Source: a virus. From it: DNA of 24,139 nt. The notes below the pieces were generated by a model. That model did not search any database, was not told the origin of the DNA, and worked only from the letters and a program-made list of their open reading frames with translations. Numbering within the stretch: the first letter of the stretch is position 1; every line of letters starts with the position of its first letter. The translations under genes were made by a program, and so were the position numbers. This document shows positions 1-24,139 of this stretch, piece after piece. The DNA lies in IMG/VR virus record IMGVR_UViG_3300042561_000583, positions 1-24,139 of that record. One strand, given 5' to 3'.

Positions 1-84
1 CCGGGCGAAGACCTGAAGGCGATCCACCAGTACAGCACCAAGCACACGGACGAGGGGAGGCCCAGCGAATGCGCGACCTACTAG
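1..84 (+). CDS. 3' end of an upstream gene (unidentified, possibly capsid)
   Basis: Frame 1 is open from the window edge to a TAG at 82-84 and encodes 27 residues ending SECATY. The next gene starts inside it at 69, a 16-base overlap typical of this operon, and a GGGGAGG ribosome site for that gene lies within this tail at about 54-60. From its place just before the head-tail connector genes it could be the end of the major capsid protein, but nothing in the 27 residues identifies a family. Confidence 0.55.
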   Translation, partial: PGEDLKAIHQYSTKHTDEGRPSECATY

Positions 85-287
85 TCATCCGCCGCAACTG
101 CGCCGTCTGGGAGGCGCTGCACGGGCGGCGTGATCTGAGGCCAGGGTGCATCGTGGAGGTTGACGAGCGCATCGCCGAGAAGCTCGTCGCAAGCGGAAGC
201 GCGGAGCGGCTGGTGAAGCCCGCGCCGCTGTTCGAGGACGCGGCCCAACTCGCCGCCGTGCCGAAGAGAAGGCAGAGGAAAGCCTGA
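69..287 (+). CDS. Small phage protein of the capsid-connector junction
   Basis: A 72-residue protein with a central stretch, RPGCIVEVDERIAEKLVASG, that follows the pattern 'pG-x-VVEVDe-x-xAxxLvxxGxAe' common in short phage proteins encoded between the major capsid gene and the head-tail connector. The C-terminus is basic (KRRQRK). The start has a GGGGAGG site about eight bases upstream. The stop overlaps the next start as TGATG. The family's function is not established; a minor head or connector-associated role is inferred from position only. Confidence 0.7.
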   Translation: MRDLLVIRRNCAVWEALHGRRDLRPGCIVEVDERIAEKLVASGSAERLVKPAPLFEDAAQLAAVPKRRQRKA

Positions 288-1093
288 TGTCTTCAGCACT
301 CGCACACGCCACGCTCGCAGAGGCCAAGGAGTTCCTTGGCCTCACCACGCAGGACTACGACACGATCCTTGACGCGTGCCTCGACCGCGCGTCGGCGTGG
401 GTCGACCGCTACTGCGGTCGGGTGTTCGTCTCGCAGCGCCACTACGAGGTCAAGGAGGGCGGCGGGGAGCGGCTCGTCCTGCGTCATCAGCCCGTCTCGG
501 CGGTCAACTTCGTCGGAACTTCGACGGATGTTTTCCTGACAGTGACGAGCACGACGGCCTCGGACATCGCCGCGACCGTGTCTGCGTTCGACGGCAAGCT
601 CGCGCTTCGCCGCATGGACAGCGTCGGCACGGCGACGGCCACCGACCTTGCGCTCGACACCTACCCGACCACGGCGGCTCTCGCGGCACAGGTGAACCTC
701 ACGGCGGGCTTTGCCGCGACGGTCGGCGTGTCCGCGCCGAGCCGCTACCTCGCGCGCGCGGCGGGCCGAGACTGCAAGGGCGGCGGCGCGGTCATGCTTG
801 GTTACTCGGCAGTCTCCGAGTGGCAGCTGGACGAGGAGCGCGGCATCGTCTACGGAAAGAGCCTCGACCGCTGGCAATCGGTGATGGTGGACTATCAGGG
901 CGGCTACACGACGCTTCCGCCCGATGTCGTGCACGCCACGCTGTCGATGTGCGGCAACTTTTTCCGCGACAGGACGCGCGACTCGGCTGTAGCCAGCGAG
1001 TCGCTCGGCGGCTACTCGTACTCGATCAAGTCGGGCGAGGACATGAGCCGCGAGATCGACGGGCTTCTCGGCCCGTATCGGAGGATTCGTTGA
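287..1093 (+). CDS. Head-tail connector (gp6-like adaptor)
   Basis: A 268-residue protein. The N-terminus reads LAEAKEFLGLTTQDYDTILD followed by ASAWVDRYCGR, the helical opening of phage gp6-like head-tail connectors (HK97 gp6 type), in which helices form a ring below the portal. It is longer than the usual 100-200 residues: residues about 60-200 form a beta-rich, Thr/Ala-rich insertion before a closing helical part with FFRDRTRDSAVASESLGGYSYS. It would form the adaptor ring through which DNA leaves the capsid. The stop overlaps a TTG start of the next gene, and the next four products continue the connector and tail-completion series. Confidence 0.82.
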   Translation: MSSALAHATLAEAKEFLGLTTQDYDTILDACLDRASAWVDRYCGRVFVSQRHYEVKEGGGERLVLRHQPVSAVNFVGTSTDVFLTVTSTTASDIAATVSAFDGKLALRRMDSVGTATATDLALDTYPTTAALAAQVNLTAGFAATVGVSAPSRYLARAAGRDCKGGGAVMLGYSAVSEWQLDEERGIVYGKSLDRWQSVMVDYQGGYTTLPPDVVHATLSMCGNFFRDRTRDSAVASESLGGYSYSIKSGEDMSREIDGLLGPYRRIR

Positions 1094-1458
1094 GCATCGG
1101 CTCGCTCGTCACGCGGTTCGGGCGCAAGCTGTGGGTCTACAGGCCCACGGTGGGCGTTGCGTCCGATGGCGAGGTCACGCGCACCTACGCGGCGGTGTGC
1201 TGCGTCAAGGGTTTCGTGCAGCCGACCACGCAGTCCAGCGATGTCGCGCAAGGCCGCATGGACGGGCGCACATCCTGCACGATCTACCTCGAGGGCGCGG
1301 TCGACATCCGCATCGACGACGAGGTGCGCGACAGCCTCGCGACGACGGCGCGGAACTACCGCGTGATCGGGTCGGTGAACCCCGGCGAACTCGGGCTGAC
1401 TCAGGCCGCGCCGCACCTCAGCATGACCTCCGTCGAAGCGGTCGAGGTGCTGTCGTGA
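1090..1458 (+). CDS. Head closure protein (head-tail joining)
   Basis: The start is TTG at 1090, overlapping the previous stop as TTGA; longer versions of this frame run as a shadow through the connector gene. The product is 122 residues: N-terminal FGRKLWVYRPT, then a small beta-barrel with CCVKGFVQPTT, DGRTSCTIYLEG, RIDDEV and NYRVIGSVNPGE. This is the layout of the phage head closure family (HK97 gp7 / SPP1 gp16 type), which binds below the connector and stops DNA leaking until the tail attaches. Family assignment rests on size, strand pattern and position. It ends in a GTGA overlap with the next gene. Confidence 0.75.
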   Translation: MSIGSLVTRFGRKLWVYRPTVGVASDGEVTRTYAAVCCVKGFVQPTTQSSDVAQGRMDGRTSCTIYLEGAVDIRIDDEVRDSLATTARNYRVIGSVNPGELGLTQAAPHLSMTSVEAVEVLS

Positions 1459-1976
1459 GCGATGTAACGGTCGACATCGACGACGAGTCGATCCGCAGAC
1501 GCGTGAAGCGCGGGATCGTGAACGGGCTTCTTTCTGTGCAGCTCGTCATCTCGCGGCTGCTGCGGTCGGAACTTTCGCGCCCTGGCAGCGGTCGCCGCTA
1601 CCGCGTGGCGCGCGGACGCAAGAACGGGCGCAACCTCCGCGCACAGGGCATCCATGTCGCCTCGGCGGCGGGCGCTCCTCCCGCCGTCGACACGGGCCGA
1701 TTGCGGCAGTCGTGGGCGCTGGCGGGCAACGCCGACCGAACATTCGGGCGCAAGGGCAGCAAGACGACGCAGACCCTCGCGGCGATCGAGGTCGAGGACA
1801 CGGGCGACCGCGTCGGGTTCTCCTACGGCTCGAACCTGAAGTACGCGCGCTTCCTTGAGTTCGGCACGCGGCGCATCAGGCCGCGCCCGTATGTGCGGCC
1901 TGTTTTCAACGCCGTATCAAAGCGCGCCGAGCGCATCATCGGGACAGCCGCACAGGAGGAGATCGACAAGCCATGA
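1455..1976 (+). CDS. HK97 gp10-like tail completion / neck protein
   Basis: GTG start at 1455, overlapping the previous stop; 173 residues. The C-terminal part reads YARFLEFGTRRIRPRPYVRP, the signature of HK97 gp10-like proteins ('YaxyvEfGTrrm.arPflrPa'). VDTGRLRQSWA at about 80-90 is the other conserved segment ('DTGxLrxS'). A basic loop (RYRVARGRKNGRNLRAQG) is typical. The protein acts at the head-tail neck or tail completion step. It is coupled to the tail terminator by an ATGA overlap. The family is clear, though its exact structural role differs between phages. Confidence 0.87.
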   Translation: MSDVTVDIDDESIRRRVKRGIVNGLLSVQLVISRLLRSELSRPGSGRRYRVARGRKNGRNLRAQGIHVASAAGAPPAVDTGRLRQSWALAGNADRTFGRKGSKTTQTLAAIEVEDTGDRVGFSYGSNLKYARFLEFGTRRIRPRPYVRPVFNAVSKRAERIIGTAAQEEIDKP

Positions 1977-2374
1977 AGGGCATCTTCGACACCCTGCGCG
2001 GGCGTATCAACGCGAGCACCGCGCTCCTGACGGCGTGCGGCTCCCGCATCTACCTCGACGAGGCTCCCGCGAACTCGCCGACTCCGCTCGTCGTGTACTC
2101 GTCAGTCTCGGCGACGGTCGAGCCGCACTTCGGCGGACAGAAGCGGTACACGCTCGATGTCGACTTCCTGATCGTGTACACGAACGCGGGCAACACCGCG
2201 ATCTGGACGATCGCTCAGGAACTCGAGACGGCGCTGTCGACTCCGATCGCGGCGGTGTCGGGTTCTGGCATCGACCGCGTGACCGCCGTCAAGGTCGCGG
2301 GGGGCGTGCCGTCATTCGATGACGACGCTTGGACGATGACGGAACGGTACAGGCTCACCGCTTGGGACATCTGA
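1973..2374 (+). CDS. Tail terminator protein (DUF3168-like)
   Basis: A 133-residue protein: N-terminal GIFDTLRGRINASTALLTAC helix, then RIYLDEAPANSPTPLVVYS, a strand with RYTLDVDFLIVYT, a helix IWTIAQELETAL, and a final TERYRLTAWD strand. This order (helix, 'Y...P....P.vv', 'v.v.v.s', helix, final 'r..l..r') matches the DUF3168 / gp17-like tail-completion family. These proteins form the hexameric ring that stops tail tube growth and joins tail to head. It directly precedes the tail tube gene, as is usual. Confidence 0.82.
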   Translation: MKGIFDTLRGRINASTALLTACGSRIYLDEAPANSPTPLVVYSSVSATVEPHFGGQKRYTLDVDFLIVYTNAGNTAIWTIAQELETALSTPIAAVSGSGIDRVTAVKVAGGVPSFDDDAWTMTERYRLTAWDI

Positions 2375-2384
2375 GGAATCGACC

Positions 2385-2807
2385 ATGCCAACCACCTACA
2401 TCATTGGAAACGACGGCGATGTCTCGCTCGGCACGGGCATCACGAACAAGATCAAGGTTCGCACCTTTGCGGCGACGCTCGCGCGCACCGAAAGCGACCT
2501 GACGGGCTTCGGCGACACGGGTCGCCGCCGCCGCCTCGGAATGCTCGACCTGACGGGATCGCTGACGGGGTCGCTCGAAGTGAACGACACGGGCACTACC
2601 TCGGTCGCCGTGATGTTCAACCAGACCGGAACCACGCTGATCACGCTCGGCCTGTTCGACGGCACGGCAACAACCGACGCGCGAATCGCTGCGAACTGCA
2701 TCTTGAACAACTACGCCTTCGCGTCCGACAAGACGGGCGATGTCACGATCACCGCGAACTTCGGCAACGCGGACGGCGCTGCGCCCGTTGTCACCTGGCT
2801 TGTCTGA
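2385..2807 (+). CDS. Major tail (tube) protein
   Basis: A 140-residue, Thr- and Gly-rich beta protein with no membrane segment. It includes GNDGDVSLGTGITNKIKVRT near the start, a central DLTGSLTGSLEVNDTGTTSV, and a closing strand TGDVTITANFGNADGA. Size, beta content and place between the tail terminator and the tail chaperone pair identify the tube-forming protein, which polymerises as stacked hexamer rings. A 10-base gap with a GAGG site precedes the ATG, so initiation is independent, as expected for an abundant product. No immunoglobulin-like C-terminal extension is visible. Confidence 0.78.
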   Translation: MPTTYIIGNDGDVSLGTGITNKIKVRTFAATLARTESDLTGFGDTGRRRRLGMLDLTGSLTGSLEVNDTGTTSVAVMFNQTGTTLITLGLFDGTATTDARIAANCILNNYAFASDKTGDVTITANFGNADGAAPVVTWLV

Positions 2808-3064
2808 TGCACCAAGCGGTCGGACTCTTCGGCCCAAGCGAAAGCGACTGGATCGTCACGCTCGTACTGCGCGACGGCACGGCGCGGACGCGCCGCGTCT
2901 CGCCAGGGACTGTCAGCGAGGAGCACGCGGTTCGATGCGCGGTGATGTCGGAGCGGGTCGACCTCAAGGGGATCGACGGTTGGAGCATCCGCCGTGTCGG
3001 AGACAAGCGCGTTGCCGCGCCTGACGATGCGTTCGCGGAGCTTTTGCGAAGGAGGATGCGATGA
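2807..3064 (+). CDS. Hypothetical protein between tail tube and tail chaperone genes
   Basis: An 85-residue protein starting in a TGATG overlap with the tail tube gene and ending in an ATGA overlap with the chaperone gene. It opens with SDWIVTLVLRDGTARTRRV, a strand pair, and has a basic C-terminal helix (FAELLRRRMR). I do not recognise a family. Its position, coupled to both neighbours, suggests a part in tail assembly, but nothing in the residues shows this. Confidence 0.6.
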   Translation: MHQAVGLFGPSESDWIVTLVLRDGTARTRRVSPGTVSEEHAVRCAVMSERVDLKGIDGWSIRRVGDKRVAAPDDAFAELLRRRMR

Positions 3065-3450
3065 TCAGGCTGTCTGCATGGACACATGAAGTGGAGGGGC
3101 GCGCGTTCTCGCTGCGCCCGCTGACGGTTCGGGAGAGGATCGCGCTCGGCGAGAGCCTCGCGGACGCGATGGCTGCGGACGCGGCGCGTGACGCGCGCGC
3201 GGCGGGCATGACCCCGAAGGAGGCGGTCGCGGAGGCCCGCACGGCCCGCGACGAGGCGCGGCGCGCGAGCGCGCTGGTCATGTCGTGCTTCTCGCTCTCG
3301 GGGGCGCTGCGCGTCCTTGACCGCGCGTGCGAGGAGAGCGGCGAACTCGTCGCGCTCGTCGAGCCACAGGTCGCCACGGCGCTTGCGCTTGGCGCGCTCG
3401 GCATCGACCTCGAGGAGCACGAACGGCGGGCCGCGTCGGGAAATCCGTAG
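3061..3450 (+). CDS. Tail assembly chaperone, short form (gpG-like)
   Basis: A 129-residue mainly helical product. It begins with AWTHEVEGRAFSLRPLTVRE, the 'f.lrpltv.e' opening seen in tail chaperones and related tail-assembly proteins, followed by Ala/Arg-rich helices (MTPKEAVAEARTARDEARRA). The stop at 3448-3450 lies four bases after a G GGA AAT slippery heptamer (3438-3444). Its position directly before the tape measure gene is that of lambda gpG, whose product chaperones the tape measure and recruits tube subunits. The assignment rests on position plus the frameshift signal rather than on close similarity. Confidence 0.75.
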   Translation: MIRLSAWTHEVEGRAFSLRPLTVRERIALGESLADAMAADAARDARAAGMTPKEAVAEARTARDEARRASALVMSCFSLSGALRVLDRACEESGELVALVEPQVATALALGALGIDLEEHERRAASGNP

Positions 3451-3644
3451 GCCCGCTGTCGCCAGAGCCGCCGCGCGACTGGCTCGCGCACGCGCATCTG
3501 GTGGCGCGGGCGTGCCCGGGACTCGGCAACCCGCTCGACCTCGTCTGCGGCGAGTTCGAGGCGCACCTCGTCATGGCCGCGAAGGGCAGCGGCGAGCGCA
3601 CGGATGATCCCGATTGGATGAGACGATATGTGGAGGGACGATGA
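3061..3644 (+). CDS. Tail assembly chaperone, frameshifted long form (gpGT-like)
   Basis: This is the predicted -1 frameshift product. Ribosomes read frame 1 from 3061 to the slippery heptamer GGGAAAT at 3438-3444, slip back one base, and continue in the third frame to the TGA at 3642-3644. The fusion has about 194 residues: 128 from the short form, then 66 starting SVGPLSPEPPRDWLAHAHLV and ending WMRRYVEGR. The downstream part has no credible start of its own, and its frame before 3430 is a shadow of the short form. In lambda the equivalent T domain recruits tail tube subunits to the tape measure. The stop overlaps the tape measure ATG. Confidence 0.72.
3426..3456 (+). promoter_or_regulatory. 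Programmed -1 ribosomal frameshift site
   Basis: The heptamer G GGA AAT (3438-3444) sits in the correct phase (tcG GGA AAT) and fits the X XXY YYZ rule; lambda uses GGGAAAG at the same point. The zero-frame stop follows at 3448. Perfect 7-base arms GCGGGCC (3426-3432) and GGCCCGC (3450-3456) flank it, so the slip site can lie in the loop of a hairpin. Usually a stimulatory structure lies wholly downstream, so the role of these arms is inference. Confidence 0.75.
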
Positions 3645-4618
3645 ACGCGGGCGCGATCAATATCTCCGTGGCGGCGACCATGACTCGCTTCAACGAGTCG
3701 ATGACCGCCGTGAAGACGACCGCCGCGACTAAGGGCGGCGAGGCGGGCAAGGCGTTCAAGGACTCGTTCGACAAGCAGGGCAGCGGACTCGGGGCCGACT
3801 ACGGCAAGCAGCTGCAGAACTCGATACGCGGAGCCATCGCGGTCGGCGCAATCTCCCAGGCGATGAAGGTCGCGATCGAGGAGGGCGCGCGCGGCGCGAA
3901 CTTTGCGGACGCGGTCGCCGCAGGGATCAAGTCCGTGCCTGTCATCGGCGCTTTTGCAAGCCTCATCGAAGCGGGGATGGACTATGCGATCGGCACATCG
4001 ACCGCCGAGGCAGCGCGCGAAGCGTCCCGCGCAATGGAGGCCGAGGCACAGAAATCGCTTGCCGTCGCGGAGGGCCGCGCCAAGCGCCTCGTAGCCGCCG
4101 AGTTCGAACTGCGCCGCAACGCGGCGCGCGAGGCGGGGGACGAGCGTCTCGCGATCGACCTTGAGGCTCAGGAGAAGCTCGCCGCGCTCGAGAAGCAATT
4201 CAAGGAGGAAAGCCTCGCGGCGACGCGCGACAACGAAAGGAAGTTCCTTGCGGAAATCTTTCAGGCCGAGCGCAAGCTGATACAGCAGTCCGCAGCCGAG
4301 CGCATCAAGGCGATAGACGATGCGGCGGAAAAACAGGCTCGCGCCGACGAGGAACGAATCCGCGCTGAATCCGAGAAGCTGGCGCGCGAGGACGAGGCTC
4401 GGCGTGAGAAGCAGCTCGATCTCCTCAAGCAGGAACTGGCAGAGGTCGAGTCGCAGCGCGAGACGATGCGGGGCGCGGTCGGTTCTGTCTCGACTGCCAT
4501 CGGAGAATTCAGGTTCGCAGCGTACTCGGACAACGAGAAGAAGCAGAACGACAAAGACCTTCTGAGCCAAGTGAGGCAGATCAACGCAAAAGCCGCCGCG
4601 CTTGGAGGGTTCATCTAA
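3641..4618 (+). CDS. Tape measure protein (unusually short)
   Basis: The start is ATG 3641, with a GGAGGG site four bases upstream and ATGA overlap with the chaperone stop; an ATG at 3614 lies inside the chaperone frame and has no such site. The 325-residue product has an N-terminal region (NISVAATMTRFNESMTAV), a hydrophobic Gly/Ala segment at about residues 58-115 (AIAVGAISQA, VPVIGAFASLIEAGMDYAIG), and a long charged helical coiled coil at about 120-310 rich in Ala, Glu, Arg and Lys. That is tape measure architecture, though lambda's has 853 residues. By the common rule of about 0.15 nm per residue it would set a tail near 50 nm. Confidence 0.72.
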   Translation: MNAGAINISVAATMTRFNESMTAVKTTAATKGGEAGKAFKDSFDKQGSGLGADYGKQLQNSIRGAIAVGAISQAMKVAIEEGARGANFADAVAAGIKSVPVIGAFASLIEAGMDYAIGTSTAEAAREASRAMEAEAQKSLAVAEGRAKRLVAAEFELRRNAAREAGDERLAIDLEAQEKLAALEKQFKEESLAATRDNERKFLAEIFQAERKLIQQSAAERIKAIDDAAEKQARADEERIRAESEKLAREDEARREKQLDLLKQELAEVESQRETMRGAVGSVSTAIGEFRFAAYSDNEKKQNDKDLLSQVRQINAKAAALGGFI

Positions 4619-5780: not shown

Positions 5781-5781
5781 A

Positions 5782-6540: not shown

Positions 6541-6542
6541 AC

Positions 6543-7947: not shown

Positions 7948-7950
7948 CCT

Positions 7951-9330
7951 ATGGCGCTCACCTACGACGGCTCGAACGGACTCTTCTCGCGGCTCGGCGC
8001 GCTCGTCTTCATGATGGACGCGGTGCGCACGCACCAGCTGAACCTGAAGACGCTCCTCGCCAATGTGCAGCTCGAGTACTCGTCGACCGACGCGTACATG
8101 ATCGAGGTGCTTGCGGGCAACATCGAGCGCCGCATCGCCGAGGCGGGCGGCGTGCTCAACGATGTGCGCGCCGCCGCCGAGCGCACGATCATCGAGATGT
8201 GCTTCACCGAGGCGAACACCTCGGGCGCGGCGAACACGATGCGGTCGAGGCAGATCACCGACGCGCTCGTCTGGCTCATTCGCCAGATGGACGCGGACTC
8301 GAAGACGATCGACGGCACGACCGTCACCAAGTCGAGCGCGACCTACGGCGGAAGCAATGTGGGTAACGGTCAGTTCGTCTACAACTTCGACGCGCCGAAC
8401 ATCCTGCTCGGATCGACCAACGACTGGCCGAATGTGCGCACGGAGACGCTCGAGGCGCGGTGCGTGCAGGACGCGGCGAACGGCGCGATCTCGCGCGGCG
8501 CGGAGGTGTTCGAGATTCGCGGTCAGCCCGCGTACGCGCCGCTCGACTACCGCTTCCCTGCGGGGTCGGGCACTATGACGCGCGTGGCTACGGTCAGCGC
8601 CGCAGTCGACGCTGGCGGCATCTACGAGAACCAACTCACGAACTCGGATTTCGAAGACCAGACGAGCAACCTCCCCGACCAGTGGTCGCTCGTCACGGGC
8701 ACGGCGGGCACGCAGTTCCAGACGGAGACGGGCACTTTCTACCGTGGCGCGCGGTCGATCAAGCTGAACGCGGGCAGCGGCGCGTTCAACATCCGACAGC
8801 AGCTCGGCGCGTCAGGCGGCACGCTCGGGCGACTCACGCCAGACAGGCCGTATGTGATCGCGGTCGCGTACAAGATCGACACAGGCTGCACTGGCGTGAT
8901 CCGAATCAGCGTCAAGGACGGGTCGGGGAACATCATCGACTCGGGCGCGTTCGCGAGCAGTCTCACGCTGACGAGCGGTTCGACATCGTGGACGATTTCC
9001 TCCATCACGATTAGGTCGCCGCGCAACATCCCGCAGGAAACCTACCTTCACATCGAGAGCACGACCTCGCTCACGACGGCGGCGGCGTACATCGACGAGG
9101 TGATCCTCGCGGAGCTTGTGCCGATCGCGCAGGGCGGTCAGGCCGTTGGGCTACTTGCCGGGTCGACCGATTGGCGCGCGGACGACAACGGGCGCTTCAC
9201 CTTCACGAACAACGACGAGGGCGCGTTCGTTCGCGCGTTTGATCGGCTGTTCGACATGTACGGCAAGGGCTTGAGCCTTCCGCAGAACTACCTCGGCACG
9301 GAGAATATCGCCGACTCGCTCATCGCGTGA
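7951..9330 (+). CDS. Large tail-tip protein with carbohydrate-binding-like module
   Basis: A 459-residue protein. Residues 1-115 are helical (LGALVFMMDAVRTHQL, MIEVLAGNIERRIAE). Residues about 140-220 are a linker or beta region. Residues about 228-388 look like a CBM4/9-type beta sandwich: NQLTNSDFEDQ, LPDQWSLVTG, YRGARSIKLNAGSGAFNI, LTPDRPYVIAVAYK and a final AAAYIDEVILAEL strand follow the usual 'N.dFE....P.gW', 'G..slkl', 'pG..Y.....' and 'v..D.v.l' order. The end is a helical tail. It is the last gene of the late operon and would plausibly help bind cell-surface sugar. It ends tail-to-tail with the minus-strand gene, overlapping by 11 bases. Confidence 0.65.
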   Translation: MALTYDGSNGLFSRLGALVFMMDAVRTHQLNLKTLLANVQLEYSSTDAYMIEVLAGNIERRIAEAGGVLNDVRAAAERTIIEMCFTEANTSGAANTMRSRQITDALVWLIRQMDADSKTIDGTTVTKSSATYGGSNVGNGQFVYNFDAPNILLGSTNDWPNVRTETLEARCVQDAANGAISRGAEVFEIRGQPAYAPLDYRFPAGSGTMTRVATVSAAVDAGGIYENQLTNSDFEDQTSNLPDQWSLVTGTAGTQFQTETGTFYRGARSIKLNAGSGAFNIRQQLGASGGTLGRLTPDRPYVIAVAYKIDTGCTGVIRISVKDGSGNIIDSGAFASSLTLTSGSTSWTISSITIRSPRNIPQETYLHIESTTSLTTAAAYIDEVILAELVPIAQGGQAVGLLAGSTDWRADDNGRFTFTNNDEGAFVRAFDRLFDMYGKGLSLPQNYLGTENIADSLIA

Positions 9331-9702: not shown

Positions 9703-9801
9703 ATGCCTGAATGGGATCTCACCCCACTCGTCGTGGCCGCTGTCGTGTTCGGCCCTGTCCTCGTCGCAACCCTGTTCGGGAAGGGGGCGCGCGATGAGTG
9801 A
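9703..9801 (+). CDS. 32-residue single-span membrane peptide
   Basis: ATG 9703 follows AAGGAG (9691-9696) at the ideal six-base spacing, the strongest ribosome site in the region; in-frame upstream starts lie before the promoter. The product is a short polar start, one hydrophobic span (LVVAAVVFGPVLVATLF) and a charged tail (GKGARDE). It is the first gene after the early promoter and overlaps the RecT-like gene by eight bases. Early single-span phage peptides often act on host membrane proteins or superinfection, but nothing here proves a role. Confidence 0.7.
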   Translation: MPEWDLTPLVVAAVVFGPVLVATLFGKGARDE

Positions 9802-10672
9802 TCTCGTTCACACACCCGCGCAGAACGCGCAGCTAGACCCGATGACGGTCGCCAAGGTCTTCCGCGCCTCGGGGATGTTCCCAGACATCCAGAGCGAGGC
9901 GGCGGCGTGCGCCAAGCTCATCATCGGGCGCGGCCTGGGCCTTGCCGACTACGACGCGATGAGCGGGCTGCACATCATCAAGGGGAAGGCCGTACTCGCG
10001 GCGAACCTGATGGCGGCGGCGATCAAGCGGAGCGGCAAGTACGACTACCGCGCGACTTGCACGGATACCGAGTGTCGCGTGCAGTTCCTCGGGCGCGACG
10101 GCGGGAAGTGGGAGACGATCGGCGACACCTCGTTCACGCTCGAGGACGCGAAGCGCGCGGGCCTCGGCGGCGACAACTGGCGCAAGTACCCGCGTGCCAT
10201 GCTCTTCGCGCGGTGCATCTCGGCGGGCTACAAGCAGCACTGCCCCGACGCGCTCGGCGCGGCCCCTGTCTATGTCGAGGCGCACGGCGAGACGGAGATC
10301 GTCGAGGACGCACCGCCGCCGCCGGCGCGCAAGGCGCTTCCCGCGCCCGCCGCGCCGACCCGCGAGGAACGCCGCGCGGACACGGAGGCGCTGCTGTCGC
10401 CAGTGCCACAGGCCGAGCGCGCGCCAGAGCCGCATGGCGGCGGCACGCTGACCCTCGTCGCGCGCGGGTGGCAAGCCTCGGCGGTGAAGCGCCCCAACGG
10501 CACGACCATCTTCCGCGTCGATGTCGACGGTTGCGACGCTCCGTTCGCCGTGCTCGATTGCGACCTGATGCACAGCCTCGAGGCCGAGTCGGCATTTGGA
10601 CAGACCATCGAGGTGCGGTGGAAGCTCACAGCGGAGGGGAAGCGCGTGATCACGGGGGTGGCCGATGCCTAA
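9794..10672 (+). CDS. recT: RecT-like single-strand annealing protein with extra C-terminal domain
   Basis: A 292-residue protein. Residues 1-165 look like the RecT family: GRGLGLADYDAMSGLHIIKG at 46-64 ('lgl.p..al..i..i.Gk'), SFTLEDAKRAGL and WRKYPRAMLFARCIS (129-143), matching the 'w.kyPr.Ml.aRa.s' block. RecT anneals complementary single strands in phage recombination and replication. Residues about 168-215 are a Pro/Ala-rich linker. Residues 216-292 form a separate beta domain (LVARGWQASAVKRPNG, TIEVRWKLTAEGKRVITGVA) that RecT normally lacks and that could be OB-like. No partner exonuclease is seen in the window. The stop overlaps the next start by eight bases. Confidence 0.75.
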   Translation: MSDLVHTPAQNAQLDPMTVAKVFRASGMFPDIQSEAAACAKLIIGRGLGLADYDAMSGLHIIKGKAVLAANLMAAAIKRSGKYDYRATCTDTECRVQFLGRDGGKWETIGDTSFTLEDAKRAGLGGDNWRKYPRAMLFARCISAGYKQHCPDALGAAPVYVEAHGETEIVEDAPPPPARKALPAPAAPTREERRADTEALLSPVPQAERAPEPHGGGTLTLVARGWQASAVKRPNGTTIFRVDVDGCDAPFAVLDCDLMHSLEAESAFGQTIEVRWKLTAEGKRVITGVADA

Positions 10673-11583: not shown

Positions 11584-12114
11584 ATGACAAAGGACGAACT
11601 CGCGAAACTGCGGCTGCGCGTGGCCGCGCTCTTCGGCGCTGGCCATGAGGACGAGGAGATCGCTTGTCTCTGGATCCGCGAGGCCGCGCAGCTCGACCAC
11701 CAGCGCGCCGACCTGGCTCTGAGCCGCTACGCGCTGCTCGACGGCGGGCCAAAGCGGCGGTTCATCGCCGGGAAGTTCATGCGGATGTACGGCGAGACCC
11801 CCGAGCGCGCGGAGATGTCGCGCACGGCCATCGAGGAGCGCGAGCGGATCGCCGCCCGCGATGCCGAGCGGGCGGCGCTGGCCGAGGAGTGGCGGCGCGC
11901 CCGCGCGCGGTGCGAGCGCCTCGCGCCCGAGCAGATCGAGCAGATCAGCGGCCTACTCGCCCGCACCCGCGCGCCGCTGTCGCGCGACCCGTCGACATGG
12001 TCGCTCGCGACCGTGTGGCTCGTCGGCGCGATCCTCGACGGCGACCCGATCCCCGAGGTGCTGCGGTCGGCTTGCCCGTCAGGCCCGCAGAAACCCGCCG
12101 AGGATCGCGCCTGA
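11584..12114 (+). CDS. Hypothetical early protein, first gene after the structured leader
   Basis: ATG 11584 has GGGAG (11573-11577) six bases upstream. The 176-residue product is helical and charged: TKDELAKLRLRVAALFGAGH, DEEIACLWIREAAQL, an Arg/Glu-rich central helix (RTAIEERERIAARDAERAAL) likely to coil, and a C-terminal part with WSLATVWLVGAILDGDPIPE. I do not recognise a family. As the first gene of its operon, behind a leader with many hairpins, its expression is probably controlled at RNA level. Confidence 0.65.
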   Translation: MTKDELAKLRLRVAALFGAGHEDEEIACLWIREAAQLDHQRADLALSRYALLDGGPKRRFIAGKFMRMYGETPERAEMSRTAIEERERIAARDAERAALAEEWRRARARCERLAPEQIEQISGLLARTRAPLSRDPSTWSLATVWLVGAILDGDPIPEVLRSACPSGPQKPAEDRA

Positions 12115-12306
12115 GCCGTCCGCGCCGCGCGGCAGGGTGTCGGGAGGGTCTGGCGCTGCGGCGGCTCACAGGCGATTCCCGCGCGGGTCGGCTCCGATAA
12201 ATGCGATTTGCGGGAAATGCGAGAAATATTGCAGCAATGCCACGCATTGCGCCGAAACTCGGAGTAACATCCATCAGCGGCACGAAGCCGCAGAAAGAAG
12301 GAACCC
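12115..12306 (+). promoter_or_regulatory. 192-base intergenic region with overlapping inverted repeats
   Basis: No credible gene. The second half is AT-richer than its surroundings. AAATGCGA occurs twice (12199-12206, 12215-12222). ATTGC-A-GCAAT (12228-12238) and GCAATGC-CAC-GCATTGC (12234-12250) are exact overlapping inverted repeats. CGATTTGCG at 12204-12212 matches 9591-9599. These could be an operator cluster; an origin is possible, but I see no DnaA box. I could not assign a good promoter. AAGGA at about 12297 serves the GTG start at 12307. Confidence 0.5.
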
Positions 12307-12834
12307 GTGAGCAGCACCAGCAATCACCGCGAACCAATGGAACTGTCGTGCATCCCCGCCGCGCTCGGCGAGCTGCACGCGGCCATTACCGCCGCGATCG
12401 AACGCGTCGACGGTCGCATCGAGGTCACCACGCGCCCGCACATGGCGGAGCGATGGAGCGAGATCCGCGACGGCCTGACCGAGGCGCGTGAGCAGATCGA
12501 GCGTCAGTACACCGATGGCATCCTCCCCATGTCGCACGACTGCGCGCACCAAGTGTGCGAGGGAATGCCGCTCGACAGCCTCGAGGGCGCGGACTGGACA
12601 GACCGCTGGCCGTGCGCCGAGTGGGACGAGAAGTCGGGCAAGTGGATTCTCGAGTTCGTGCTCGAGGGCACGGAGCGCGAGATCGAGGACTACAGGCTTC
12701 GCCCCGTTCGGATCTTCGACGACGGCACGGTCGAGGCGATGCTCCCCGAGGACTACCGCGACGGCTTCATTGACTTTGATTTCGATGTGTTCGGACACAA
12801 CGCGGCGATCGCCGCAAAGGAAGGTGCGAAGTGA
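12307..12834 (+). CDS. Hypothetical early protein
   Basis: GTG start at 12307 after an AGAAGGA site; 175 residues. The N-terminal half is helical (LGELHAAITAAIERVDGRIE, EIRDGLTEAREQIERQYTDG), then a Cys/Trp-containing part (CAHQVCEG, DWTDRWPCAEWD), and an acidic beta end (LRPVRIFDDGTVEAMLPEDY, DFDFDVFGHN). It lies directly before the Gp157-like gene and is joined to it by GTGA. No family recognised. Confidence 0.6.
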   Translation: MSSTSNHREPMELSCIPAALGELHAAITAAIERVDGRIEVTTRPHMAERWSEIRDGLTEAREQIERQYTDGILPMSHDCAHQVCEGMPLDSLEGADWTDRWPCAEWDEKSGKWILEFVLEGTEREIEDYRLRPVRIFDDGTVEAMLPEDYRDGFIDFDFDVFGHNAAIAAKEGAK

Positions 12835-18314: not shown

Positions 18315-18334
18315 CGCTATTCCCTTTCGGCGCG

Positions 18335-18366: not shown

Positions 18367-18409
18367 GTGCAGACGGGATCGGGACGCGCAATGAGCCGAT
18401 GCCTACGGC

Positions 18410-19276
18410 ATGAACGCGAGACTCGGAGCCAAGGCTACGGCGGGCGTGACGGTCGTCGAGATCGACCTCAAGGCGAACGAGTGCCAGCAATTCCTCCTTC
18501 GCTCGGACGCGCACCACGACAGCACCTCGGCGGATCAGGCGATGGAGGAGCGTCACCTGAAGGAAGCCGTCGCGCGAGACGCGCTCATCTGCGACATCGG
18601 CGACCTGTTCGACTGCATGAACGGGCGGTACGACAAGCGCGCCGACCGCGAGCATCTTCGCCCCGAGTATCAGCACGGGCCATACATGAACCGCCTCGTC
18701 GATGTCGCCTACGAGCGGTATCGGCCCTACGCCGACAGGTGGCTGCTCATGTCCCCTGGCAACCATGAGACGGCGGTCGCGAAGCACAACGACTTCGACC
18801 TGACGCAGCAGCTCTATTCGCGGCTCAAGCCCCACGCGCCGCTCCTGAACCTCGGCAAGTACCAAGGGTTCCTGCGCATCCACTGCACGCGCGTCAACCG
18901 CACGGTGCGCTGCGGCTCCGCGACGATCGCCTATCACCACGGCTTCGGCGGCTCCGCGCCCGTCACGCGCGGCGTGATCCAGTCCAACCGGATGGCGATC
19001 TCGTATCCCGACGCGGACATCGTGTGGTCGGGCCACACCCACACCGAGTTCTATCTGTCGATCGCGCGCTTGCGGCTCATTCAGGACGCGGTCAAGCGCG
19101 ACGAGCAGATTCACATCCGAAGCCCTGGCTATAAGGAAGACACCTCGCACGGCAGCGGGTGGGCCGTCGAAAAGGGCTTCATGCCGCAGTCGCTCGGCGC
19201 GTGGTGGCTCAAGGTCTGGATCGAATGCGAGGGCCGAAACTACATCGTCCGTTATTCTCTGGAGGCCGCGAAGTGA
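18410..19276 (+). CDS. Calcineurin-like metallophosphoesterase
   Basis: A 288-residue enzyme with all metal-binding blocks in order: SDAHHD (D33, H35), GDLFD (64-68), GNHE (117-120), YHHG (175-178) and SGHTHTE (207-213). This is the two-metal phosphodiesterase/phosphatase family that cuts phosphate esters, often DNA ends or nucleotides in phages. A stop at 18392 limits the frame, so ATG 18410 is the first possible start; it lacks a clear ribosome site, and GTG 18446 is an alternative. An ATGCC/GGCAT repeat covers the ATG. It follows a terminator without an obvious promoter. Substrate unknown. Confidence 0.85.
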   Translation: MNARLGAKATAGVTVVEIDLKANECQQFLLRSDAHHDSTSADQAMEERHLKEAVARDALICDIGDLFDCMNGRYDKRADREHLRPEYQHGPYMNRLVDVAYERYRPYADRWLLMSPGNHETAVAKHNDFDLTQQLYSRLKPHAPLLNLGKYQGFLRIHCTRVNRTVRCGSATIAYHHGFGGSAPVTRGVIQSNRMAISYPDADIVWSGHTHTEFYLSIARLRLIQDAVKRDEQIHIRSPGYKEDTSHGSGWAVEKGFMPQSLGAWWLKVWIECEGRNYIVRYSLEAAK

Positions 19277-19578
19277 GCGACGAAGCGCCCGAGCAGAAGC
19301 CCGAGCCGAAGCCGAAGCCGAAGCGGTCGGCCCCCGACCCTCGCCGCATCGAGGCCGAGGTGGTCGCGCAGCTCGCGCGCGAGGTCATCGAATCCATCGG
19401 GGCCGACGCGGTGCTCGTCGTGTGGACATCGCAACGGCGGCGCAGGACGAGCGTGAACATGACCGCGCTCGGCAACGCGCTGACCGTGCGCGGCCTCATG
19501 CAGTGGATCTCCGCCAAGGTCGAGGAGGAGGAAGAGGAGGACGAGGCTGACGATGGCGAGGACGATGCCGACGAATAA
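19273..19578 (+). CDS. Small protein with Pro/Lys start and acidic tail
   Basis: GTG 19273 (GTGA overlap with the phosphoesterase); 101 residues. It starts with EQKPEPKPKPKRSAPDPRR, has a folded middle AEVVAQLAREVIESIGADAV, VVWTSQRRRRTSVN and LTVRGLMQWISAKVE, and ends in an almost purely acidic run (EEEEEEDEADDGEDDADE). The acidic tail could mimic DNA or buffer a basic partner; that is inference. No family recognised. Confidence 0.58.
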   Translation: MSDEAPEQKPEPKPKPKRSAPDPRRIEAEVVAQLAREVIESIGADAVLVVWTSQRRRRTSVNMTALGNALTVRGLMQWISAKVEEEEEEDEADDGEDDADE

Positions 19579-19602
19579 TGCGTCACCAGTAAAGGGGGCG
19601 CG

Positions 19603-19899
19603 GTGCGCAGAAATGCCGACCGCGCCGATGAAAGGCGCATGACGGAACGAGGTCGGCAACAGGTCGCGCTCTTCGCCAACTGGTTCCAGCTCGCCACGAT
19701 GGTGCTCGGATTCGGTTCGGTCGTGTTCGCGCTCGGCCAGCGCGGCGAACAGCTGGAGGCTGCGCGCCGCGCGATGGAGAAGGTAACGGCGACCGTCGAG
19801 CTTCTTGCCCGCGAGGACGCGGCGAAGACGAAGGCGCTCGAAGACATCCAAAGGCGGCTCGACGCGATCGAGCGCCGCATTGAACGGAGCGAAAGATGA
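19603..19899 (+). CDS. Membrane protein with coiled coil (lysis or membrane role possible)
   Basis: GTG 19603 after AAAGGGGG; an ATG at 19639 is a possible alternative. The 98-residue product has a charged start, one span at about 24-45 (FQLATMVLGFGSVVFALG) and a long coiled coil (EKVTATVELLAREDAAK, LEDIQRRLDAIERRIERSE). This N-in membrane plus coiled-coil layout is common to spanin-like and holin-associated proteins, but also to others. It is coupled to the next membrane gene by a four-base overlap. Confidence 0.6.
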   Translation: MRRNADRADERRMTERGRQQVALFANWFQLATMVLGFGSVVFALGQRGEQLEAARRAMEKVTATVELLAREDAAKTKALEDIQRRLDAIERRIERSER

Positions 19900-20405
19900 A
19901 CTGGATCAAGGAGAACCCCGCCGCCGCATGGCTCGCCGTGCTCACGGTCGGGGTGTTCGTCGTGCTCGGCACGCTTCAGGGCTGCGACCTCCGCAGCCGC
20001 ATCGTCGTGAAGGCTCCCCCCGACCTCCTTGCGACGGTCGATGTCGACGAGCCGCTGACGCTCGACGAGGCTGGCCGGGTGTGGGAGGACTGGACGGCGT
20101 GGGTGCAGTCGCGCAGCAAGCAGTACCAGAGCGCGGTCGGAGACGCGGAAGACCGCGCCGCGCGGATCGAGGCGCTTCTCGACCTTGGCCTCGCGGCTGC
20201 AAACGAGGGTGCGGCGCAGATTCCTGGCGGCGCGTTCCTCGTCGGCGGTCTGTCGCTCCTCACGGGCCTCTTCCTGAAGCGCCCAAGCGAGGACAAGCGC
20301 ACGGCCAAGGAGAAGGAAGACTCCTACAACGCGGGCCTCGAGGAAGGCAAGCGGCTCATCATGGCCGCGATCAAGGGCGACAAGCCCGAGGAGCCGAAGG
20401 CATGA
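19896..20405 (+). CDS. Membrane or lipoprotein of the putative lysis region
   Basis: ATGA overlap; 169 residues. The N-terminal span (WLAVLTVGVFVVLGTLQGC, about 12-30) ends in LQGC, a lipobox-like cleavage site with cysteine 30, although Gln at -2 is unusual. A helical region follows (WEDWTAWVQSRSKQYQSAVG), then a second hydrophobic segment at 111-128 (GGAFLVGGLSLLTGLFLKRP) and a charged tail with KEKEDSYNAGLEEGKR. I recall similar proteins in other phages next to tail or lysis genes; function unproved. Confidence 0.62.
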   Translation: MNWIKENPAAAWLAVLTVGVFVVLGTLQGCDLRSRIVVKAPPDLLATVDVDEPLTLDEAGRVWEDWTAWVQSRSKQYQSAVGDAEDRAARIEALLDLGLAAANEGAAQIPGGAFLVGGLSLLTGLFLKRPSEDKRTAKEKEDSYNAGLEEGKRLIMAAIKGDKPEEPKA

Positions 20406-20620
20406 CCGCGCCACAGGAGCCGTTCGGGTGGATGGACGCGAGCGCCGCGTACACTCAGCGCATGATGCGCGAGACGGACGCGGCGGGCCGCATGGAGCTG
20501 CTCAGTCAGTTCCCCGTCTACTCCGTGTGGAAGGACACACAGGCGGCGCTTGCGGAGGGCGCGGCAGAGATTCGCCGTCTGCGGCGGTTGCTCGAGGAGA
20601 AGACCAATGACGCGTCTTAG
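20402..20620 (+). CDS. Small helical protein
   Basis: ATGA overlap; 72 residues: QEPFGWMDASAAYTQRMMRE, MELLSQFPVYSVWKDTQAAL and a basic coil EIRRLRRLLEEKTNDAS. Soluble and helical. It overlaps the next gene by 14 bases. No family recognised. Confidence 0.52.
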   Translation: MTAPQEPFGWMDASAAYTQRMMRETDAAGRMELLSQFPVYSVWKDTQAALAEGAAEIRRLRRLLEEKTNDAS

Positions 20621-20771
20621 CGTGACGATGGCGAGGCGCAGCGCACGGGTCGTGGTCGCGCCCGAGCCGCTCGCGGAGTACGCGCCGACCGATGTGGTGT
20701 GGTGCGTGGCGCGCGCGGCGCTCGCCGCCCTGTTCGCGCTCGCGTGCCTGTGGTTCGCGCTAGGAGGTTGA
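20607..20771 (+). CDS. 54-residue membrane protein
   Basis: ATG 20607 with GAGGAGA upstream. Basic N-terminus (TRLSVTMARRSARVVVAPE) and one C-terminal span (VARAALAALFALACLWFALG). It ends one base before the next gene. It is the third membrane protein in 1.2 kb, which fits a lysis or envelope-directed cassette, but no holin family is recognisable. Confidence 0.52.
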   Translation: MTRLSVTMARRSARVVVAPEPLAEYAPTDVVWCVARAALAALFALACLWFALGG

Positions 20772-20772
20772 C

Positions 20773-21150
20773 ATGAGTTGCTGCGACGGCACATCTGACG
20801 CATCGTTCGTCCAGTACGACCTGACGCTTAAGCAGGGCGCGCGGGAGGTGCTCACCATCGTCTACGAGGGCAGCCTGAGCGGCTACTCGGGCCGCGCGCA
20901 GTTCCGACAGTCGTTCGACTCGACGGCGACCGTGTTGAGCCTGACTAGCCCCAGCGCGGGCCTCACGATTGCCACGGCGGCGACGGTGGCTACGGTGGTG
21001 ATGACGATCAGCGCGACCGCGTCGACGGCGCTTACGGCGCAGCAGATGCGCGGCGTGTGGGATCTCGAGCTGTTCGATCCGCTCGACGCGAGCGCGACGA
21101 TTTCGCCCGTGCGCGGTGGTTACATCTTCGTGCCCGAGGTGACGAAGTGA
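20773..21150 (+). CDS. BppU-N-like fibre-attachment protein
   Basis: A 125-residue beta protein preceded by AGGAGG. YDLTLKQGAREVLTIVYEGS, LSGYSGRAQFRQSFD, a run of Thr/Ala strands, QMRGVWDLELFDP and RGGYIFVPEVTK follow the pattern '.dl.l.qG......v.....p.dLtGy.ar.qiR......', '..yDlel...', '.l.G.v.v.peVT' of the N-terminal domain of phage upper baseplate (BppU-like) proteins. It likely links the fibre, encoded next, to the tail. Confidence 0.7.
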   Translation: MSCCDGTSDASFVQYDLTLKQGAREVLTIVYEGSLSGYSGRAQFRQSFDSTATVLSLTSPSAGLTIATAATVATVVMTISATASTALTAQQMRGVWDLELFDPLDASATISPVRGGYIFVPEVTK

Positions 21151-22937
21151 GCACGCTCACGGTCACGCCAATCGTTCGCACGCTGACGATCAGCCCGACC
21201 GTCAGGACGCTGACGATTGAGCGGAACGCGTCGACCCCGACTGGCCCTGCGGGCGGCGACCTGTCGGGGTCGTACCCGAATCCTGCGGTCGAGACGCGCG
21301 GACGCATCGCGTTCACCACCCAGTATCTGATGGACGGGACGAGCGTGGGCGACTTCCTCGCGCCGACCTCGGACAGCGGAGCCGTGGCCTTCTCGACCTA
21401 CGCGGAGATGACGACGCAGCAGGGGGTCTTCCGCTCCCGCTGCGCGATCCGCCACAACGGCGCGACTCTTCCTGGCACTCCGACATGGCAACTCGGCCAG
21501 CACGCGGGAGTCGAGGTGGAGGCGAGCATCCGTGTCGTGGACTACGACACCGCGACGCATCAGTTCATGGTCGGAATCCACAGGCTGCACACTTGCCCCG
21601 ATCTCGTGACGATCGGAGCGGAGACGCTGGTCGGTTTCTACCCGAAGAACGGCACATGGTGGGTCGGGGTCTACATCTCTGACGGGATGAACCAGTGCGA
21701 CAACGCGGGCGTGGTGAACCACGACACGGGCGTGAGCACCTCGGTGGACAGGCTCCTCCGCGTGGTCGCGTTCCCTGGTCAGTCTGGCGCGCTGTTCTAC
21801 ATCGACGGCTCGCCCGTGTACCGCTACTCGGGCGCACTTGAGGATTCGTTCTACGCGACCATTGCGTACCTCGGCTGCATGCTTCAGGACCGCGCTGGCA
21901 CATCGGCGTTCGGCGCAAAGGTTCGCGTCAACTCGATGGTCGCGCGCCACACGCTCGCGCGGAACGACTCGCGCCTAGACCCACAGACGATCACCCTCAC
22001 TGGCGATGTCACGGGCAGCGGCACGGGTTCGTTTGCGGCGACCATCGCGAACGACGCGGTGACCTACGCCAAGATGCAAAATGTCTCGGCCACCGACCGC
22101 CTCCTCGGGCGCTCGACGGCGGGCGCTGGCGATGTCGAGGAGATCGTCTGCACGCCGTTCGCTCGGGGCGTCCTCGACGACGCGGACGCGGCGACGGTGC
22201 GGAATACGCTCGGACTGGGTACGACCGACACGCCGCAATTCGCGGGGATCAGCCTCGCGAGCGGCGAGTTCCTGTCGAACGCTTCAGACGGCCGCATTGA
22301 CATCGGCCCGAACGGCACGCACCCCTCGCAGCCATCGCAGGACTACTACGCGCTCACCGTCGACGGTCAATCGTGGGGTTTCGGCGTTCGCATCGGCACG
22401 CGCAACACGCGCACCGACACTTTAAACACATCGTCAAGCCTGAACTTCCTAGTTCCCGTCGTTCTGAACAACGACACACGGTTCGCGTTCGGCTCGTCGC
22501 AGAACTACTTCCTGAGCCATGTCAGCGGCGCGCGCGACGGCCTCGCGTGCGGACTGCTCGTCAACAGCGCGGGCAGCACGGGCGCGCTTGCGATCTGCCA
22601 AGGCAACCAGATCAGCGCGGCGAACCGCATCCCCGCCACCGCGCACGCGCACCCGACGCTCTACCTCTACGGCAACGGCTCGGCCAACGCCAACGACTTC
22701 GTCCGCCTGTCCCACGACACGACGAACGCCACGCTCGAGTCGGGGCGCGGCAAGCTCGTCGCGAAGGCGGCGTCGGTCGTGCGCATCGAAGGCCCGAGCG
22801 GCGGGTTCGATCTCCCCGCGACGGCAGGAAGCAGCGGACAGGTTCTCACGACTGACGGATCGAATGCATCGTGGCAGACCGCAAGCGGCGGTGGCGTGAG
22901 TCAAGCATTCGTAATCGCGATGGCGGTGGCCCTATGA
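21147..22937 (+). CDS. Tail fibre protein
   Basis: GTG 21147 (GTGA overlap); 596 residues. A repeat VRTLTI occurs near the start, then GPAGGDLSGSYPNPAVE, a fibre linker found in many phages. Residues about 60-270 form a lectin-like beta domain (GVEVEASIRVVDYDTAT, GTWWVGVYISDG, LFYIDGSPVYRYSG). Next come LTGDVTGSGTG, DAVTYAKMQNVSATDRLLGR and VRNTLGLGTTDTPQFAGI, typical shaft motifs, and a C-terminal part with SSGQVLTTDGSNASW. It trimerises as a shaft with receptor-binding domains. The C-terminus (AFVIAMAVAL) is hydrophobic. Confidence 0.8.
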   Translation: MSTLTVTPIVRTLTISPTVRTLTIERNASTPTGPAGGDLSGSYPNPAVETRGRIAFTTQYLMDGTSVGDFLAPTSDSGAVAFSTYAEMTTQQGVFRSRCAIRHNGATLPGTPTWQLGQHAGVEVEASIRVVDYDTATHQFMVGIHRLHTCPDLVTIGAETLVGFYPKNGTWWVGVYISDGMNQCDNAGVVNHDTGVSTSVDRLLRVVAFPGQSGALFYIDGSPVYRYSGALEDSFYATIAYLGCMLQDRAGTSAFGAKVRVNSMVARHTLARNDSRLDPQTITLTGDVTGSGTGSFAATIANDAVTYAKMQNVSATDRLLGRSTAGAGDVEEIVCTPFARGVLDDADAATVRNTLGLGTTDTPQFAGISLASGEFLSNASDGRIDIGPNGTHPSQPSQDYYALTVDGQSWGFGVRIGTRNTRTDTLNTSSSLNFLVPVVLNNDTRFAFGSSQNYFLSHVSGARDGLACGLLVNSAGSTGALAICQGNQISAANRIPATAHAHPTLYLYGNGSANANDFVRLSHDTTNATLESGRGKLVAKAASVVRIEGPSGGFDLPATAGSSGQVLTTDGSNASWQTASGGGVSQAFVIAMAVAL

Positions 22938-24139
22938 AGAAACTCCTCGGCGTCGATGTCCCTGGCTTGTACTCGTTTAGCCCAGATGGCCCTGGCGCTG
23001 GAACCATCACATTCAGCCGAATCTCGCTGAAACTCAGCCAGATTCTCCTGATCGTGAATGTCACGGCAAACAACACGATCATCTACAACTTCGCGGACGC
23101 GGCCACGGGATCGGCGGGCTTCATTGCCCTGACCAGCGGGAACTTTGAACTGACGCTCGCCGCCGACACGGGAGCGATGAACTCGACCGACGAGCTGCTG
23201 ATCTATCTCGATCTCGAGGAAGACGGCGATCAATACACGCGCGTCGGCGGAATCGACCCCAACGGCTACCCCATGGGGCTGAGCGTCAACGCGCGCGGCC
23301 ATGTCGTGCCGAGCGATCAGGAGATCGTGACCAGGAGACTCGACCGCGTCGGCTCCGTGGCCTCCGTCGATACGACGGGCTACAACTCGATCGTCGTCCA
23401 GTTGACGGGCACATGGGCGGGCACGCAGTCTTTCGAGGTATCGAACGACGGCTCTTCGTGGTCGGCTGTCGCGGGATGGATCGTCGCGAACGCGGCGACT
23501 CCCGTTACAAGCGTCACGGCCTCTGGGCACTGGATCTTCCCGTGCGCGGGTCGGTTCTTCCGCGTGCGCTTCTCGACTTACACAAGCGGCAATGCGGTGG
23601 TGAACCTCGTCCTGAAGAACCAACCCGCCTTCTTCCCGACATCGTCTCCGAACATCGCCGCCAACTCGTCGGTGAACATCGGCCAGATCGGCGCGGGCGC
23701 GATCGTCGCCGAGGACACGGCATCGACGGCCAACCCGCTGATCGTCGGAGGCGTGGTGCGAACCGCGCTCCCCGCCGCGACGGTGGTTGCTGGCGACGCG
23801 GTGCGCGCGACCTTCTCGCGCAGCGGTCAACTCGTCCTCAAGCAGTTCGCGCCGGGCGACCTCGACTTCGCCGTCTCGACGACCGTGACCACGGCCACGC
23901 AGACGGCGATCCGCGCAGCGCAGGGCGCAGACATCCGCCAGAGCGTGACATCGGTCACATTCCAGAACACGAGCGCCACGGCCACCACGCTGACGATCCA
24001 AGACGCGAGCGCGACGCTCGTCACCTTCAGCGTCCCCGCGAGCATGACGCTTCCCGTTCAGCTCGACTTCCCCACCCCGCTGCGCGGGTCGGCCAACGCC
24101 GCGCTCAACTACACCGCAGGAACGACAGGATCGAACATC
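22934..24139 (+). CDS. Large fibre-associated protein, cut by the window end
   Basis: ATG 22934 (ATGA overlap with the fibre stop). The frame is open for 402 codons to the window edge without a stop. It is beta-rich and Thr/Ser/Ala-rich: KKLLGVDVPGLYSFSPDGPG, ITFSRISLKLSQILLIVNVT, then a domain with SIVVQLTGTWAGTQSFEVSN and ASGHWIFPCAGRFFRVRFST that resembles a discoidin-like or sandwich repeat, and TATTLTIQDASATLVTFSVP near the end. Probably a second fibre or tip adhesin. The end and full size are not visible. Confidence 0.68.
   Translation, partial: MKKLLGVDVPGLYSFSPDGPGAGTITFSRISLKLSQILLIVNVTANNTIIYNFADAATGSAGFIALTSGNFELTLAADTGAMNSTDELLIYLDLEEDGDQYTRVGGIDPNGYPMGLSVNARGHVVPSDQEIVTRRLDRVGSVASVDTTGYNSIVVQLTGTWAGTQSFEVSNDGSSWSAVAGWIVANAATPVTSVTASGHWIFPCAGRFFRVRFSTYTSGNAVVNLVLKNQPAFFPTSSPNIAANSSVNIGQIGAGAIVAEDTASTANPLIVGGVVRTALPAATVVAGDAVRATFSRSGQLVLKQFAPGDLDFAVSTTVTTATQTAIRAAQGADIRQSVTSVTFQNTSATATTLTIQDASATLVTFSVPASMTLPVQLDFPTPLRGSANAALNYTAGTTGSNI

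What the first reader, a model, noticed from the sequence alone, without database searches (positions are those of the whole stretch)
1..24139. The tetranucleotide ACGT is absent from the whole window
I read every line for ACGT, including across line breaks, and found none. With about 64% G+C a random sequence of this length would hold about 80. The genes show workarounds: Asp-Val is written GAT-GTN throughout (for example 923, 2157, 5577, 10520, 18704, 22954) although GAC dominates elsewhere, Asn-Val and Tyr-Val use AAT and TAT, and Thr before Trp or Ser uses rare ACA (6675, 7447). It holds in intergenic DNA too. Other palindromic 4-mers (GATC, CATG, GTAC, TGCA) are common. This suggests long exposure to a restriction system that recognises ACGT, or a mutational process acting on it. 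No methyltransferase in the window would explain it.
Basis: seen in the sequence. Interest (0 to 1): 0.78.

Follow-up and report, generated by a model that had tools for sequence, protein, structure and literature searches.

The report
Phage DNA purged of restriction sites
This bacterial virus has lost every copy of the four-letter sequence ACGT and nearly every copy of several other restriction-enzyme target sequences, most likely because its hosts cut DNA there; its relatives have lost different sets of targets, a known escape strategy seen here in an unusually rich form.

Summary
In detail: ACGT occurs 0 times against 78-82 expected from Markov models, and 0 against 69.8±5.0 in 400 synonymous-codon shuffles. 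The window is also nearly free of CCGG (24/160), GGWCC, GGYRCC, GACGCC, CCGCGG, CGGCCG and GRGCYC, while GATC, CATG, TCGA, GCGC, CGCG and GANTC are near or above expectation. Of testable 6-mers holding no depleted 4-mer, 44% of palindromes but 1.6% of non-palindromes are depleted, as expected for orthodox Type II restriction. In related phages the avoided set is mix-and-match: ACGT, AGCT, CCGG or GGCC, alone or together; two contigs nearly lack all four. On a terminase tree of 79 rows, ACGT avoidance changes state at least 11 times. At 347 ACGT sites of relatives' orthologues the window phage keeps none; control palindromes are kept at 28-51%. Best explanation: removal of Type II sites under restriction by hosts carrying several systems. 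No gene is found only in ACGT-avoiders, so a phage-encoded nuclease is unlikely; mutational decay does not fit the replacements. Host and ACGT enzyme were not identified. The phenomenon is known; this is a new, strong, comparative example.

The parts
1..24139 (.). Entire window free of ACGT on both strands; also depleted in CCGG, GGWCC, GGYRCC, GACGCC, CCGCGG, CGGCCG, GRGCYC
287..1093 (+). head-tail adaptor (PHROG 442)
   Evidence: E=2.7e-25
1455..1976 (+). tail completion/Neck1 protein (PHROG 5); scanned as ORF 1131-1976
   Evidence: E=9.8e-14
7951..9330 (+). conserved 459-aa protein, no family match; used to collect relatives
9794..10672 (+). RecT-like single-strand annealing protein (PHROG 561); used to collect relatives
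11584..12114 (+). fast-evolving core gene of unknown function, present in avoiders and non-avoiders; no invariant acidic/lysine nuclease residues
12831..13352 (+). Mu Gam-like DNA end protection protein (PHROG 253)
   Evidence: E=3.9e-22
18410..19276 (+). calcineurin-like/DNA repair exonuclease (PHROG 7339, PF00149)
21147..22937 (+). protein with a DUF5907 repeat (PF19264)
   Evidence: E=2.5e-8 (scanned as ORF 21057-22937)

Best explanation
[quoted passage not shown] Each unmethylated recognition site is a chance for incoming DNA to be cut, so variants that lost a site, mostly by synonymous changes, were selected until ACGT reached zero and CCGG, GGWCC, GGYRCC, GACGCC, CCGCGG, CGGCCG and GRGCYC nearly so. 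Related phages, met by hosts with other enzyme sets, purged other sites. Shown: the absence, its palindrome specificity, its independence of codon usage and protein sequence, the loss of ACGT at orthologous sites, and the switching of avoided sets between relatives. Inferred: that restriction is the selecting agent and which enzymes act.
For: ACGT 0/78-82 and 0 against 69.8±5.0 in codon shuffles. Other Type II sites against the same shuffle: CCGG 21 vs 133, GGWCC 3 vs 65, GGYRCC 1 vs 38, CCGCGG 0 vs 25, CGGCCG 1 vs 27, GRGCYC 2 vs 39. Of 6-mers with 8 or more expected and no depleted 4-mer inside, 8/18 palindromes but 16/976 non-palindromes are depleted. Among 80 contigs of 8 kb or more, strong depletion hits ACGT (29), AGCT (28), CCGG (11) and GGCC (2), and no other testable palindrome. 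At least 11, 9 and 5 changes of state for ACGT, AGCT and CCGG on the terminase tree. At 347 ACGT sites of relatives the window phage keeps 0; control palindromes are kept at 28-51%. Phages that share little more than recT with the window also lack AGCT entirely (G024, G025, G030) or nearly lack ACGT (G027). No MTase found among scanned proteins of G001.
Against: No host is established and no ACGT-specific enzyme was found. HpaII-family enzymes were absent from 198 Rhodobacteraceae genomes, although that family may not be the host. Eco29kI-family enzymes (CCGCGG, by established specificity) pass the cut-off in only 4 of 198.
Confidence: 0.88

Rival explanations
1. The phage encodes its own ACGT-cutting nuclease without a methyltransferase (to destroy host or competitor DNA) and so must keep its own genome free of the site; relatives encode variants of other specificity.
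For: Complete absence rather than reduction; no methyltransferase found; a fast-evolving core gene (window 11584-12114) occurs in most relatives and variable small genes lie between it and gam.
Against: At least seven separable sites are purged in one genome. No G001 gene is present in the ACGT-avoiders and missing from non-avoiders. The core gene occurs in both and its alignment has only L, Y, G, F and W invariant, no D/E/K set. Phages of otherwise different gene content avoid the same palindromes. No restriction-nuclease hit was noted in Pfam, PHROGs or PADLOC scans.
Confidence: 0.05
2. A mutational process removes ACGT, for example deamination of a methylated cytosine in CpG.
For: Of 201 one-step replacements of ACGT, 124 are ATGT or ACAT.
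Against: The transition excess comes largely from codon position: when the site starts at codon position 2, C-to-T is the synonymous change (82 ATGT); when it starts at position 1, ACG (Thr) goes to ACC 19, ACA 17, ACT 9. CCGG is replaced mostly by CCCG and CGGG, not CTGG/CCAG (67+63 against 16+9). TCGA and GCGC, which also contain CpG, are fully frequent.
Confidence: 0.02
3. Codon usage, codon-pair bias or oligonucleotide composition gives the absence without selection against cutting.
For: Hosts often share mild 4-mer biases with their phages (general knowledge).
Against: Synonymous shuffles give 56 or more ACGT every time; relatives of similar GC have normal ACGT but zero AGCT; depletion is specific to palindromes.
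Confidence: 0.02
4. Another sequence-specific host defence that reads short palindromes (for example phosphorothioation-based systems) selects against the sites.
For: Such systems also read short motifs; no enzyme was identified here.
Against: The avoided list includes degenerate palindromes typical of Type II enzymes (GGWCC, GGYRCC, GRGCYC), which favours Type II restriction.
Confidence: 0.03

Closest known systems
Elimination of Type II restriction sites in prokaryotic viruses (Rusinov et al. 2018, PMC6286503)
   Same: Near-complete exclusion (O/E below 0.1 with more than 15 expected) of orthodox Type II sites in a dsDNA phage genome; they report 3.9% of site-genome pairs excluded and about one genome in ten with complete or almost complete elimination.
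   Different: Here the host is unknown; many sites are purged at once, and the avoided set is compared over about 80 relatives that differ in it.
HF1-group haloviruses (PMC7230728)
   Same: Complete absence of GATC and CTAG across isolates, GGWCC and many 6-mer palindromes absent, with a member-specific extra absence of AGCT in HRTV-7.
   Different: Archaeal viruses with one largely shared avoided set; in the present family the avoided set switches between close relatives and is centred on ACGT, AGCT, CCGG and GGCC.

Membership tests
Anti-restriction by Type II site elimination | Observed/expected below 0.1 with more than 15 sites expected | tested here: met
   ACGT 0/78-82; GGWCC, GGYRCC, CCGCGG, CGGCCG, GRGCYC at 0.00-0.05 of the codon-shuffle mean; CCGG 0.15-0.16
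Anti-restriction by Type II site elimination | Restricted to palindromic, Type II-like motifs | tested here: met
   6-mers depleted: palindromes 8/18, non-palindromes 16/976
Anti-restriction by Type II site elimination | Not a by-product of codon usage or protein sequence | tested here: met
   synonymous shuffle z = -13.9 for ACGT
Anti-restriction by Type II site elimination | Host encodes the cognate restriction enzyme | tested here: inconclusive
   host not established; HpaII family 0/198, Eco29kI family 4/198 over cut-off in Rhodobacteraceae; ACGT enzymes were not searched, no family for them being known to me
Anti-restriction by Type II site elimination | No protecting methyltransferase in the phage | tested here: met
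   none found in the scanned proteins of the window and G001; a ParB-N6 MTase fusion occurs in relatives G004, G005, G010 and G011 but not in G001
Phage-encoded methylase-less restriction nuclease (considered) | A gene present in all avoiders of a motif and absent from non-avoiders | tested here: not met
   within tblastn sensitivity and contig completeness

The most novel reading that the evidence does not exclude
Within one phage family the avoided set turns over so fast, and over so few palindromes (ACGT, AGCT, CCGG, GGCC plus a shared list of 5-6-mers), that it is a readable barcode of the restriction repertoire of the recent hosts, usable to match uncultured phages to host strains and to order host switches in time.
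Probability: 0.3. Interest if true: 0.6.

Novelty: new member of a known kind. Interest (0 to 1): 0.42.

Why it matters
Restriction-site avoidance is known, but here dozens of related uncultured phages show different total absences, so gain and loss of avoidance can be counted on a tree and the avoided set could serve as a clue to the host's restriction enzymes. It also shows that a single missing 4-mer in a phage should be read together with all other Type II sites.

Tried and rejected
Window DNA against phage records: no match. Terminase against phage isolates: only distant hits below 40% identity, so no isolated relative. Host search: one close terminase relative (74%) in 84,980 species genomes, an all-phage contig binned in a Rhodobacteraceae MAG; another contig of that MAG has low GC and is poor in CpG words, so the bin looks mixed; two further Rhodobacteraceae genomes hold distant terminase relatives at 36-43% identity, and one other weaker hit appeared in a phylum-wide sample. 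Host therefore left open. REase families PF09561 and PF09517 as above. Gene 11584-12114 as candidate nuclease: rejected on alignment and distribution. PADLOC on ten window proteins: nothing but one weak match. No RNA families or tRNAs in the window. A C5-methylase match (PF00145, 5.3e-9) in one member of the accessory set A1 was seen but not traced to its protein; it may belong to the same fusion protein or another relative.

Full report
Observation. ACGT is absent from the whole window: 0 against 78 expected from an order-2 Markov model on one strand, 82 on both strands pooled. Shuffling synonymous codons among 45 called genes 400 times, which keeps the proteins and the codon usage, gives 69.8±5.0 and never fewer than 56. 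About 2.0 kb lies outside called genes and also has none; at the window's mean rate 6 to 7 would be expected there (calculation).

ACGT is not alone. CCGG is at 24 of 160. Against the codon shuffle the window has GGWCC 3 vs 65, GGYRCC 1 vs 38, GRCGYC 6 vs 71, CCGCGG 0 vs 25, CGGCCG 1 vs 27, GRGCYC 2 vs 39 and CCWGG 20 vs 67, whereas GATC, CATG, TGCA, TCGA, GCGC, CGCG, GANTC, GCNGC, CTCGAG and GTCGAC are at or above expectation. Some of these overlap (GACGTC holds ACGT, RCCGGY holds CCGG, GGCGCC lies in both GGYRCC and GRCGYC), but ACGT, CCGG, GGWCC, GGYRCC, GACGCC, CCGCGG, CGGCCG and GRGCYC can be told apart (GACGCC and GGCACC on their own). Among 6-mers with at least 8 expected sites and no depleted 4-mer inside, 8 of 18 palindromes but 16 of 976 non-palindromes are depleted. 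This is the mark of orthodox Type II recognition sites.

What the window is. It is an IMG/VR virus record with no near relative among phage records. A relative, G001 (33,704 b), carries its genes at 100% identity and adds terminase, portal, protease, capsid and more. G011 and G438 carry 127-base terminal repeats at 34.9 and 35.7 kb, so the genome is probably about 34-35 kb. The window itself encodes head-tail connectors, a RecT-like annealing protein, a Gam-like end-protection protein and a phosphoesterase/exonuclease. No methyltransferase was found in the scanned proteins of the window or G001; a ParB-adenine-methyltransferase fusion occurs in G004, G005, G010 and G011.

Relatives. Scans with RecT, terminase and the 459-aa protein gave well over a hundred loci. 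Among 80 contigs of 8 kb or more, strong depletion (below 0.12 with 20 or more expected) falls on ACGT (29 contigs), AGCT (28), CCGG (11) and GGCC (2); no other testable palindrome, and only GCCC among non-palindromes (7). A few of these contigs share a source record, so the counts are approximate. Examples over whole contigs: G025 AGCT 0/100 and G030 AGCT 0/123; G428 ACGT 0/84 and CCGG 0/144; G426 ACGT 1/99, AGCT 0/100, CCGG 7/93, GGCC 2/69. Most AGCT-avoiders have near-normal ACGT and the reverse. The 5- and 6-mer sites vary as well. On a terminase tree of 79 rows the avoid/not-avoid state changes at least 11 times for ACGT, 9 for AGCT and 5 for CCGG; phage genomes are mosaic, so these counts belong to the terminase tree. 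G024, G025, G027 and G030 match the window phage in little more than recT yet lack AGCT or nearly lack ACGT, so the property is not bound to one gene set.

How the sites were lost. In 103 pairs of orthologous genes, relatives that do not avoid ACGT have 347 ACGT sites at aligned positions; the window phage (read in G001) keeps none, whereas TCGA, GCGC, CATG, GATC and TGCA are kept at 28-51%. Replacements follow synonymy: sites starting at codon position 2 become mostly ATGT (82), sites starting at position 1 become ACCT 19, ACAT 17 and ACTT 9; 125 of 201 single-base replacements are synonymous, against 38 of 148 for TCGA. CCGG goes mainly to CCCG and CGGG. This is selection against the site, not decay of a methylated cytosine.

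Mechanism. The best-supported explanation is removal of recognition sites under restriction by hosts that carry several Type II systems. The selecting agent is inferred. A phage-encoded nuclease would need a gene that follows the avoided motif; none was found when every G001 gene was sought in 12 ACGT-avoiders, 9 contigs that avoid neither and 10 AGCT-avoiders, and the one fast-evolving core gene (11584-12114) is shared by all groups and shows no nuclease-like invariant residues.

Host. Not established. The only close terminase relative in species genomes is an all-phage contig in a Rhodobacteraceae MAG whose bin looks mixed. HpaII-family enzymes were not found in 198 genomes of that family and Eco29kI-family enzymes pass the cut-off in 4. 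Sampled stretches of two Rhodobacteraceae genomes do not lack ACGT (0.79 and 1.38), but they may not be hosts.

Comparison. Site elimination is documented for about one viral genome in ten (PMC6286503), and HF1-group haloviruses show the same kind of complete absences with one member-specific extra (PMC7230728). The window is a new and strong member of this known kind. What is unusual is the breadth within one genome and the fast change of avoided sets between close relatives.

Noticed in passing
L166, L171, L172, L185-L187; whole contigs G430 and G444: A sub-clade lacks the non-palindromic 4-mer GGGC/GCCC almost wholly (3/80 in G430) as well as AGCT; no simple Type II palindrome explains it.
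   Followed up: partly
window 11584-12114 and homologues in most well-covered relatives: Fast-evolving core gene (about 28-60% identity while terminase is 65-88%) near recT and gam; motif ALxxYALxxGGPxRRFIPGKF; the homologue scanned (L060:4410-5075) matched no family.
   Followed up: partly
L058:17866-19377 (G005) and G004, G010, G011: ParB-like domain fused to an N6-adenine methyltransferase in some relatives, not found in G001.
   Followed up: partly
window 12115-12830 (between the core gene and gam): The interval between the core gene and gam holds different small genes in nearly every relative, a variable spot.
   Followed up: no
G426/G427 (L232-L235), G428 (L236-L237): Contigs with extreme purges: G426/G427 nearly lack all four of ACGT, AGCT, CCGG, GGCC; G428 lacks ACGT, CCGG, CCNGG, GGNCC, GGYRCC and RGCGCY.
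   Followed up: partly
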